Shown here in pieces: positions 24,120 to 28,188 of a stretch of DNA of 64,000 nt. The DNA lies in the NCBI GenBank assembly GCA_030695565.1, contig JAUYRZ010000029.1, positions 62,001 through 126,000 on the forward strand, in the 5' to 3' direction. The stretch comes from Archangium sp. Lineage in GTDB: Bacteria > Myxococcota > Myxococcia > Myxococcales > Myxococcaceae. Every line of letters begins with the position of its first letter. The first letter of the stretch is position 1. The notes below the pieces were generated by a model. It saw only the letters and a program-made list of their open reading frames with translations. It had not been told where the DNA came from and did not search any database. The translations under genes were made by a program, and so were the position numbers.

Positions 24120-26360
<2,241 letters not shown>

Positions 26361-26388
26361 CCCTTTCCCCCTCGGGGGAGAGGGAGCT
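26361..26388 (+). terminator. Hairpin from the dispersed repeat, after the kinase gene
   Basis: The arms CCCTTTCCCCC and GGGGGAGAGGG pair with one T-G wobble and a 2-base loop, directly after the kinase stop. It is a partial copy of the GGGAGAGG-type repeat. There is no T run, so termination is inferred from stem strength and position. Confidence 0.5.
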
Positions 26389-26449
26389 CACGGCGACAGT
26401 TACGTAGAATCCTGTAGCCGAAAAATTGATCAGTTCCGTGGTGCACCTA

Positions 26450-26479
26450 CTCTGTGTGTGCAGCTGCCCACACACGGAG
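26450..26479 (+). promoter_or_regulatory. 5' leader hairpin that buries the ribosome-binding site
   Basis: The arms CTCTGTGTGTG (26450-26460) and CACACACGGAG (26469-26479) pair over 11 bases with one T-G wobble, around the loop CAGCTGCC. The GGAG of the second arm is the only Shine-Dalgarno motif of the ATG at 26487, seven bases away. Translation should therefore depend on opening the stem. Whether it is a real riboregulator is inference. Confidence 0.5.
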
Positions 26480-26486
26480 AACGCCC

Positions 26487-26648
26487 ATGAAGAAGCTCAT
26501 TTTCGCAGTGATGACGGTGATGACGGTGGTCGTTGGTGGTGTGGCTGCCGCAGGGTCGATGAGCAAGCCCAGCGATCGCGAGGTCGAGCAGGCGATCGAC
26601 TCCCGGCTTCACGCGATGCTGGTGAAGCTGAACGCCACCAAGAAGTGA
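26487..26648 (+). CDS. Small exported peptide, 53 residues
   Basis: A very short ORF with a clear signal-peptide-like start (KKLIFAVMTVMTVVVGGVAA) and a mature part of about 30 residues (PSDREVEQAIDSRLHAMLVK). GGAG lies 7 bases upstream, inside a hairpin. The basic N-terminus, hydrophobic core and AAA/AAG-like cleavage site support a real gene. It is upstream of carD and in the same direction, with a 52-base gap. Function unknown. It is small enough that homology would be hard to detect. Confidence 0.55.
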   Translation: MKKLIFAVMTVMTVVVGGVAAAGSMSKPSDREVEQAIDSRLHAMLVKLNATKK

Positions 26649-26700
26649 CCTGCTTGGATAACGAGTGACTTCGCAAAACGGTCGTGGTGGAAGTCACACC

Positions 26701-27657
26701 ATGCCCGACATGACGTCGCTCTCCGTCGGCGACAGGCTGGTGTATCCGAACCAGGGCCTGTGCTCCGTCACCGAGATCAAGACCGAGGAGATCGCCGGTC
26801 AGAAGCTCACTTTCGTCAGCCTGGTCATCATCGAGACCGGCGCGAAGGTGAAGGTCCCCCGCGAGAAGCTCGAGAAGAACGGCGTGCGCCGTGTCTCGAC
26901 TGCCGACGACGTGAAGAAGGTCGTCGACTATCTCAAGGGTGCCTCTGACAAGGCGTCGCTCGATTGGAAGAAACGCGCCCGCGAGAACACCGCGCGCTTG
27001 TCCGAAGGCGGTCTGCTCGGGCTGGCTGAGGTGGTGAAGGGTCTTCAGGAACTCTCCGAGCTCCGGCCCCTGCCCCCCAAAGAACGCGATCTCTACAACG
27101 ACGCGCGCCACCTGTTCGTCGACGAGCTGTCGGCGGCGATGGGCGTGCCCGCGGCCGACGCGGAGGATGCGTTCGACATTCTCCTGTTCATTCCCGGCCG
27201 CGATCGGCCCAAGCGCACCGCCGAGGAGTTCGCGGGCCTGGGTGAAGAAGGCGACGAGCTCGGCATGGAGGGCGATCTCATCGGCATCGACGGGGGCGAA
27301 GAGGCCACCGAAGAATCGACCGAAGAGAAGGCCGAAGAGGGCGAGTCGGAAGAAGGCGGCGACGACGAAGAAGAAGGCGCCAAGAAGAAGCCGAAGGCGG
27401 CCGCCGCTGCGGCGCCTCCGAAGACGGCCAGGGGCAAGAAGACGCTCATCTCGGATGTCGAGGTGACCATGCCCGCGTCGCTGGCGCTCACCGAGAACCT
27501 GCCCAAGAAGCGGGGCCGCCCGCCCAAGCCGAAGCCCGAGGTGACGGAGCCGCCTCCGCCGCCGAAGAAGCGCGGCCGCCCGCCCAAGCCGAAGCCCGAA
27601 GTGACCGAGCCCCCTCCTCCGCCGAAGAAGCGCGGGCGTCCGCCCAAGGCCAAGTAA
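26701..27657 (+). CDS. carD: CarD, RNAP- and DNA-binding global regulator with AT-hooks
   Basis: CarD of Myxococcus xanthus controls light-induced carotenogenesis and starvation development by binding RNA polymerase and AT-rich DNA. The 318-residue product has the CarD/CdnL/TRCF RNAP-binding module at 1-75 (LSVGDRLVYPNQGLCSV and IAGQKLTFVSLVI) and a helical part to about 170. A long acidic stretch follows (about 173-226, many Glu), then a Lys/Ala linker and three AT-hooks, each KKRGRPPK, at residues 271, 291 and 311. The architecture and length closely match M. xanthus CarD (about 316 residues). ATG 26701 is the conserved start; GTG 26665 upstream would add 12 unlikely residues. Confidence 0.93.
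   Translation: MPDMTSLSVGDRLVYPNQGLCSVTEIKTEEIAGQKLTFVSLVIIETGAKVKVPREKLEKNGVRRVSTADDVKKVVDYLKGASDKASLDWKKRARENTARLSEGGLLGLAEVVKGLQELSELRPLPPKERDLYNDARHLFVDELSAAMGVPAADAEDAFDILLFIPGRDRPKRTAEEFAGLGEEGDELGMEGDLIGIDGGEEATEESTEEKAEEGESEEGGDDEEEGAKKKPKAAAAAAPPKTARGKKTLISDVEVTMPASLALTENLPKKRGRPPKPKPEVTEPPPPPKKRGRPPKPKPEVTEPPPPPKKRGRPPKAK
27500..27656 (+). repeat. 60-bp tandem repeat coding the CarD AT-hooks
   Basis: A near-identical 60-base unit occurs about 2.5 times. It codes for the hook KKRGRPPK followed by a PKPEVTEPPPPP linker. Hook number could vary by slippage between strains. Confidence 0.75.
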
Positions 27658-27672
27658 TTTCCGGAGATCATC

Positions 27673-28188
27673 GTGATCCGCATCTTCACGCTCGACGAGT
27701 TCGATCCAGCGCTTCTCAAGGCGCTCACCAAGTCGCTCTACACCGCGTTCGGCGTGGGCTCCGAACACAGCGGCGCCGTCACCGTGCCTCACGGGCAGCA
27801 GGAGCCCTACGACGCCAACAAGCTCCTCGACGCGATGCCCAAGGTGCACGCGCTGGCGGACGACAAGGTGCTGTTCCTCACCAGCCGCAAGCTCGCCCCA
27901 CGGAAGCTCGTGTCGGGTGAAGCGCCCACGTACGGGTTGTCGCGTTACGGGCAGCAGCGAGCGGTGGTCACCACCTCGACCATCAAGGGCCTCGCGCCCG
28001 ACAACGTGAAGCTGCTCGCGCGGTACGCGATGCAGGAGGTCGGTCACACCTACGGGCTGCACCACTGCCTCGATCCGCGCTGCGCGATGTACCCGCAGTG
28101 GACTCCGTCGTACGCGCTGGGTGAAGCGAGCTTCTGCACGTATTGCCGCGATTCGAGCGACGCGAAGATCCGCACGACGAAGTCGTGA
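27673..28188 (+). CDS. carG: CarG, archaemetzincin-like Zn-binding partner of CarD
   Basis: CarG forms a complex with CarD in M. xanthus and is needed for its activities; it is not a protease. The 171-residue product carries an archaemetzincin-like motif with the pattern Q121-E-V-G-H125-T-Y-G-L-H-H131-C132, then C137-A-M139 and C155-T-Y-C158. The first His of the HExxH zinc-protease motif is Gln here, while the Cys quartet is intact, consistent with a structural zinc role. The GTG start lies 15 bases after the carD stop, and the stop overlaps the next gene. The pair is a marker for Myxococcota. Confidence 0.9.
   Translation: MIRIFTLDEFDPALLKALTKSLYTAFGVGSEHSGAVTVPHGQQEPYDANKLLDAMPKVHALADDKVLFLTSRKLAPRKLVSGEAPTYGLSRYGQQRAVVTTSTIKGLAPDNVKLLARYAMQEVGHTYGLHHCLDPRCAMYPQWTPSYALGEASFCTYCRDSSDAKIRTTKS

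What the first reader, a model, noticed from the sequence alone, without database searches (positions are those of the whole stretch)
26450..26648. Tiny exported peptide with its ribosome-binding site locked in a hairpin
An 11-bp stem contains the only Shine-Dalgarno motif of a 53-residue signal-peptide ORF upstream of carD. This is a candidate RNA thermometer or ligand-controlled leader, and the peptide is of a size commonly missed.
Basis: partly seen in the sequence, partly recalled or inferred. Interest (0 to 1): 0.5.

Follow-up and report, generated by a model that had tools for sequence, protein, structure and literature searches.

The report
Small secreted protein, read-through-locked hairpin
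A tiny, probably secreted protein found next to the regulator gene carD in many myxobacteria is read from its own strongly conserved promoter, and the hairpin that would hide its ribosome-binding site can form only in longer messages that run in from the gene before it.

Summary
The stem and the ORF are real. The stem has 11 pairs (26450-26460 with 26469-26479) and contains the only Shine-Dalgarno (SD) motif of a 53-codon ORF (26487-26648). The ORF is a genuine gene: 77 of 96 genomes of the family have a full-length homolog, usually just upstream of carD, and 68 of 68 compared pairs have dN/dS below 1.

The thermometer or riboswitch reading fails. In 70 of 71 homologous loci the gene follows a promoter-like block: a -35 (TTGATC in 69), exactly 16 variable bases, then TACNNT. 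In the window the -10 (26448-26453) overlaps the stem's 5' arm. A message from this promoter (start near 26459-26462) lacks the arm; its SD is predicted about half open. Only RNA reading through from the upstream kinase gene holds the whole stem; there the SD is predicted 0.1-1.4% open from 20 to 55 C.

The two segments match better within a genome than between genera (p=0.0008, 14 genera). Six of 14 genera with long leaders carry the pairing; Myxococcus and Corallococcus (21-22-nt leaders) do not.

Best reading: a conserved small exported-protein gene whose translation is blocked in read-through RNA in some lineages, as recalled for IS10 transposase. The lock is inferred; the protein's role is unknown.

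The parts
24216..26360 (+). Upstream serine/threonine kinase gene with PEGA domain (start codon uncertain), the source of possible read-through RNA
   Evidence: Pfam Pkinase and PEGA; a hit to it lies upstream on the same strand in 63 of 71 loci
26399..26418 (.). Imperfect dyad GTTACGT-N6-CTGTAGC upstream of the -35 (GCTACAG-N12-CTGTAGC in Corallococcus-type genomes); possible regulator site
   Evidence: Read from the sequences; not tested statistically
26414..26425 (+). Conserved block GTAGCCGAAAAA just before the -35
   Evidence: Mean 1.41 bits per column over 17 genera
26426..26431 (+). -35 element TTGATC
   Evidence: TTGATC in 69 and TTGCCA in 1 of 70 loci
26448..26453 (+). -10 element TACTCT, exactly 16 nt after the -35; overlaps the stem's 5' arm
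   Evidence: TACNNT at spacing 16 in 70 of 71 loci
26459..26462 (+). Expected start of transcription
   Evidence: Inferred from the -10; not measured
26450..26460 (+). 5' arm of the stem
26469..26479 (+). 3' arm of the stem; its last four bases GGAG (26476-26479) are the SD
26487..26648 (+). Small ORF, 53 codons, probable signal peptide (about residues 1-22) and a helical mature part
   Evidence: Homologs, dN/dS and model:
26665..26697 (+). Second stem, GTGACTTC 26665-26672 with GAAGTCAC 26690-26697, over the carD ribosome-binding region
   Evidence: Both arms in 5 of 6 own-genus genomes (read); isolated fold not exceptional
26701..27657 (+). carD
   Evidence: Pfam; on the same strand within 32-123 nt of the small ORF in 63 of 71 loci
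27673..28188 (+). carG
   Evidence: Pfam Peptidase_M54; carD-carG order as in PMC8156234 (passages)

Best explanation
The window holds a conserved small gene for an exported, mostly helical protein. It is transcribed from its own sigma-A-type promoter (TTGATC-N16-TACTCT) between a kinase gene and carD-carG. The promoter's own message starts at about the end of the 5' arm of the hairpin, so it cannot form the hairpin and its SD is usable. Only RNA reading in from the kinase gene carries both arms; there the SD is shut. In this genus and a few others the stem therefore most likely works as a read-through lock, which ties translation of the protein to its own promoter. Shown here: ORF conservation, the conserved promoter block, the overlap of -10 and arm, predicted energies, and the match between the two segments across genera. 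Inferred: the start of transcription, the existence of read-through RNA, and the block in translation.
For: ORF: 77 of 96 family genomes, 63 of 71 beside carD, dN/dS below 1 in 68 of 68 pairs. Promoter: -35 and TACNNT exactly 16 nt apart in 70 of 71 loci with a variable spacer (0.57 bits against 1.84 and 1.67); TTGACC-N16-TAGCGT in two genomes outside the family. Hairpin absent from own RNA: SD open 0.47-0.54 with starts at 26459-26462, against 0.001-0.014 in RNA from 26361; opening the SD costs 6.9-8.2 kcal/mol in read-through RNA and 1.3-2.5 in own RNA for G000, G003, G004. Pairing: cognate segments match better than swapped ones, p 0.0008 for 14 genera, median 0.0032 over random representatives.
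Against: Eight of 14 genera with long leaders do not show the pairing, and within the own genus G002 and G001 have lost it. G005 has a mismatch in the stem. In 40 of 70 loci the leader is too short for it. The genera are related, the test was designed after looking at the data, and with some representatives p reaches 0.058. Scrambling the 5' arm changes the opening energy little in g15 and most g16 loci. No transcript data were available; a 10-pair hairpin after the kinase stop codon (26361-26384) might already limit read-through.
Confidence: 0.55

Rival explanations
1. The stem has no function: -10 elements rich in CCCT/CTCT and SD motifs rich in GGAG pair by composition, and a GTGTG/CACAC stretch extended the match in this genus by chance. 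The gene and its promoter are as above.
For: Eight of 14 long-leader genera and all short leaders but one nominal case lack the excess; in a 91-nt context the fold is not exceptional.
Against: Cognate against swapped segments, p 0.0008, with -10 and SD present in both; different letters pair in g1 and in g15/g16.
Confidence: 0.3
2. The inverted repeat is a DNA operator: a repressor dimer binds TGTGTG/CACACA over the -10 and start region.
For: Its position from -10 to about +20 is typical for repressor sites (general knowledge); near-identical arms in G000, G003, G004 and G018.
Against: The arms change together to unrelated letters (GTCGCGC/GCGCGAC in G019), which a fixed binding site does not predict; no candidate repressor found or sought.
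Confidence: 0.12
3. RNA thermometer or ligand-controlled leader.
For: The SD is inside a stable stem in any RNA that starts upstream of 26451.
Against: -10 overlap with the 5' arm; SD opening 0.001-0.014 from 20 to 55 C, so no switch; no Rfam match; stem missing in most of the family.
Confidence: 0.03
4. In the own genus the small ORF also acts as a translational leader for carD: ribosomes ending at its stop codon open a second hairpin (GTGACTTC/GAAGTCAC) over the carD ribosome-binding region.
For: Both arms in 5 of 6 own-genus genomes; in G002, G004 and G005 the stop codon itself is part of the 5' arm; intergenic distance only 32-64 nt.
Against: The isolated fold is not exceptional (z -1.5) and a longer piece prefers another fold. 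In the window the stop codon lies 16 nt before the arm. The g8 and g12 genomes inspected lack the small gene and keep a conserved block before carD. It does not exclude the main reading.
Confidence: 0.15

Closest known systems
Fold-back protection of IS10/Tn10 transposase mRNA against outside promoters (recalled, no paper on it read here)
   Same: SD paired with sequence upstream of the gene's own start, so that only read-through RNA is shut
   Different: Here a chromosomal gene in its own genus context, no transposon; function not tested
T4 late genes such as e and soc, whose early read-through RNA hides the SD (recalled; the T4 review PMC2988021, passages, does not treat it)
   Same: Promoter within or beside the hairpin, so that the own message escapes the lock
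   Different: Cellular gene, sigma-A-type promoter
ISPpu9 transposase 5'-UTR structure (PMC8450116, passages)
   Same: Structure burying the ribosome-binding site lowers translation; weakening it raised reporter activity 26-fold
   Different: That structure is in the gene's own 5'-UTR and works with small RNAs
M. xanthus carD-carG locus (PMC8156234 and PMC9304148, passages)
   Same: carD followed by carG, CarD with AT-hook-like C-terminus; restricted to related myxobacteria
   Different: The passages read do not mention a small gene upstream of carD

Membership tests
RNA thermometer | SD-containing stem present in the gene's own mRNA | tested here: not met
   5' arm overlaps the conserved -10; the start itself was not measured
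RNA thermometer | Stem melts in the physiological temperature range | tested here: not met
   Predicted SD opening 0.001-0.014 from 20 to 55 C; prediction only
Known RNA family (Rfam) | Match at the curated gathering score | tested here: not met
   0 matches in the window
Sigma-70/sigma-A promoter | Two conserved hexamers with fixed spacing and variable spacer | tested here: met
   70 of 71 loci, spacing 16; a strict consensus scan found 0 sites
Sigma-70/sigma-A promoter | Transcription starts 5-9 nt after the -10 | not testable with these tools
   No transcript data
Read-through (fold-back) translation lock | SD paired only in RNA that starts upstream of the gene's own promoter start | tested here: met
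   Predicted for the window; G003 and G004 alike
Read-through (fold-back) translation lock | Pairing kept by compensating changes | tested here: inconclusive
   p 0.0008 for one choice of representatives, median 0.0032, up to 0.058; absent in 8 of 14 genera
Read-through (fold-back) translation lock | Reduced translation of read-through RNA | not testable with these tools
   Needs reporters
PhrK-type pheromone (NF038040) | Score above the curated cut-off | tested here: not met
   22.6 bits against 35, residues 1-28, mostly the signal peptide

The most novel reading that the evidence does not exclude
Several myxobacterial lineages keep, and have re-made with different letters, a stem between the -10/start region and the SD of the same chromosomal gene. 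The promoter sequence thus doubles as an antisense to the gene's own ribosome-binding site, so that a small secreted protein encoded beside the global regulator CarD can be made only from its own promoter and never from read-through RNA.
Probability: 0.35. Interest if true: 0.5.

Novelty: new member of a known kind. Interest (0 to 1): 0.36.

Why it matters
It adds a small secreted protein family, without a curated Pfam or NCBIfam model above cut-off, linked to carD across Myxococcaceae and reaching other families of the order. Its promoter is strikingly conserved. If the lock is real, it shows that a chromosomal gene can use its own -10 region as an antisense arm against read-through translation. 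More generally, a hairpin over an SD must be checked against the start of transcription before it is called a thermometer.

Tried and rejected
Thermometer or riboswitch: rejected on the -10 overlap, the flat temperature response and the lack of an Rfam match. Family-wide conserved stem: rejected, because 40 of 70 promoter-bearing loci have leaders under 30 nt without it (for the count, for the test). Known protein family: no Pfam or NCBIfam model above cut-off; no PDB fold match. Amphipathic secreted helix: hydrophobic moment not above shuffles in three sequences. Generic promoter and terminator scan of 26300-26800: 0 sites. Regulon of the promoter block: GAAAAATTGATC and TTGATC-N16-TACNNT each occur once in the own genome, so no regulon there. 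Paper searches by a recalled locus tag, by small proteins and by start sites in M. xanthus gave nothing on this gene (listings only).

Full report
Observation. The stem and the ORF are in the sequence as described. The arms are 26450-26460 and 26469-26479, 11 pairs with one G-U, -17.2 kcal/mol. For the 40-nt piece 0 of 200 dinucleotide shuffles fold as well; for a 91-nt piece 21 of 200 do. GGAG 26476-26479 is the SD of ATG 26487. An in-frame GTG at 26454 could extend the ORF, but relatives do not share that extension.

The small gene is real. With the window protein as query, 144 relative genomes gave strong hits in the own genus and family. With an alignment of 29 homologs, 77 of 96 genomes of the family have a full-length match at E<=2e-7, and one more (G029) has a partial match beside carD; this count leaves out weak partial hits to signal peptides of longer proteins. 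The other 18 family genomes, of genera g8 (6), g12 (4), g20 (3), g7 (2), g13, g21 and one of g5, have no full-length match. In the order, three genomes outside the family have strong matches (G087, G093, G106), two of them beside carD. I examined 71 loci in detail; five Corallococcus-type genomes (G071, G073, G081, G083, G085) and G013, which also match, were not in that set. In 63 of 71, carD follows on the same strand within 32-123 nt. In the other eight (six g5, one g3, one g19) it is not adjacent; for G009 and G007 carD lies further along the same contig. A hit to the window's kinase lies upstream on the same strand in 63 of 71; some of these hits are weak. Pairwise dN/dS is below 1 in 68 of 68 pairs from four genera (0.08-0.94). 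Conserved features are the MKK start, a hydrophobic stretch, an A-x-A-like site and I/L/V-D-x-R in the mature part. AlphaFold2 gives two helices, 2-23 and 30-52, mean pLDDT 78. No curated family reaches its cut-off.

The promoter. Upstream of the gene, 70 of 71 loci have a -35 (TTGATC in 69, TTGCCA in 1) and TACNNT exactly 16 nt later; G010 lacks it. In choosing the -10 my script preferred spacing 16 where TA stood there, which it did in all 70. In one genome per genus (17 genera) the hexamers carry 1.84 and 1.67 bits per column, the preceding GTAGCCGAAAAA 1.41, the spacer 0.57, and the rest of the stem's 5' arm beyond the -10 only 0.63. Outside the family, G087 and G106 have TTGACC-N16-TAGCGT. 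TTGATC-N16-TACNNT occurs once in the 8.5-Mb own genome. A pattern scan of 84,980 species found the block in 36 stretches, 34 of them in records with myxobacterial names; two carry other labels. PMC8156234 (passages) reports an M. xanthus sigma-A promoter with TTGACA and TACCTC, so such -10s are used there. Fixed spacing with a variable spacer is what a promoter predicts and what a structured RNA element does not.

Consequence for the hairpin. The -10 (26448-26453) overlaps the first four bases of the 5' arm, and the expected start (about 26459-26462, inferred) is at the arm's end. The predicted mean SD open probability is 0.001-0.014 in RNA starting at 26361 and 0.47-0.54 in RNA starting at 26459, 26460 or 26462, almost independent of temperature from 20 to 55 C; at 30 C all starts from 26452 on leave it at about 0.4-0.6. 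In the genomes with the perfect stem (G000, G003, G004) the SD costs 6.9-8.2 kcal/mol to open in read-through RNA, 1.3-2.5 in own RNA and 2.8-3.6 when the 5' arm is scrambled; most other genera show no such excess (31 of 70 loci given).

Is the pairing selected? Against shuffled leaders, the -10-to-SD stem is in excess (p below 0.05) in four of six own-genus loci, five of six g5, the single loci of g14, g15 and g18, and two of seven g16; it is not in g2, g3, g4, g10, g11, g17, g19, g22, g24 or g26, nor, one nominal case of 27 apart, in g23 (all 70 loci). The letters differ: CTCTGTGTGTG/CACACACGGAG here, CCTGTCGCGC/GCGCGACGGG in G019. Swapping 3' segments between genera lowers the match: cognate mean 15.1 against 11.2, p 0.0008 for 14 genera; over 40 random choices of representatives the median p is 0.0032, range 0.0003-0.058; all 30 long leaders give p 0.0001, which ignores relatedness. 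The genera are not independent, and the test was designed after looking at the data. I take it as moderate support.

Names. By equal contig length, own-genus loci correspond to records labelled Archangium sp. (for example L128 and G005, 26,726 bases), g23 to Myxococcus (L139, M. xanthus AM003, and G078) and g16 to Hyalangium (L159 and G065); this is a match by length only.

Mechanism. The most likely account is a small exported-protein gene with its own promoter, plus, in some lineages, a hairpin that shuts its SD in RNA coming from the kinase gene. This works like the fold-back protection of IS10 transposase mRNA and the T4 late genes (both recalled). Translation data are missing, so the lock is inferred. 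That a buried ribosome-binding site lowers expression has precedent: weakening such a structure raised a reporter 26-fold in ISPpu9 (PMC8450116, passages).

CarD. The seven g8 and g12 loci inspected have no small gene but keep a conserved block before carD (GTCGTGGCATC ... TGNTACGA, 3 of 6 g8 and 4 of 4 g12 genomes). A similar block stands between the small gene and carD in Myxococcus and Corallococcus. So carD there probably has its own promoter, and the small gene is not an obligatory leader. In the own genus this block is gone and a short hairpin covers the carD ribosome-binding region instead.

Noticed in passing
window 26665-26672 and 26690-26697: A second inverted repeat, GTGACTTC/GAAGTCAC, covers the carD ribosome-binding region; both arms are present in 5 of 6 own-genus genomes, and in three of them the small ORF's stop codon is part of the arm.
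   Followed up: partly
window 26399-26418: A dyad before the -35, GTTACGT-N6-CTGTAGC; in Corallococcus- and Myxococcus-type genomes GCTACAG-N12-CTGTAGC or CTGTTGC. Half-sites 6 or 12 apart suggest a regulator site.
   Followed up: no
window 26361-26384, 29172, 9489, 1506: Palindromic CCCTYTCCC...GGGAGAGGG sequences, four in the window, one directly after the kinase stop codon; possibly a dispersed intergenic repeat.
   Followed up: no
L173, L175, L176, L177, L180, L182, L184, upstream of carD: A conserved block GTCGTGGCATC ... TGNTACGA that looks like carD's own promoter in genomes without the small gene.
   Followed up: partly
L180, L182, L184: In g8 genomes a relic-like CTGTAGCGGAAA without the following TTGATC stands upstream of carD, as if the small gene and its promoter had decayed.
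   Followed up: no
L149 (BNCN01000001.1) and L147 (CAMDBH010000005.1): Records labelled Comamonas sp. and Klebsiella pneumoniae MAG carry the myxobacterial promoter block; L149's contig length equals that of G044 contig 1, placed in the Myxococcus-type genus g23, so that label is probably wrong.
   Followed up: no
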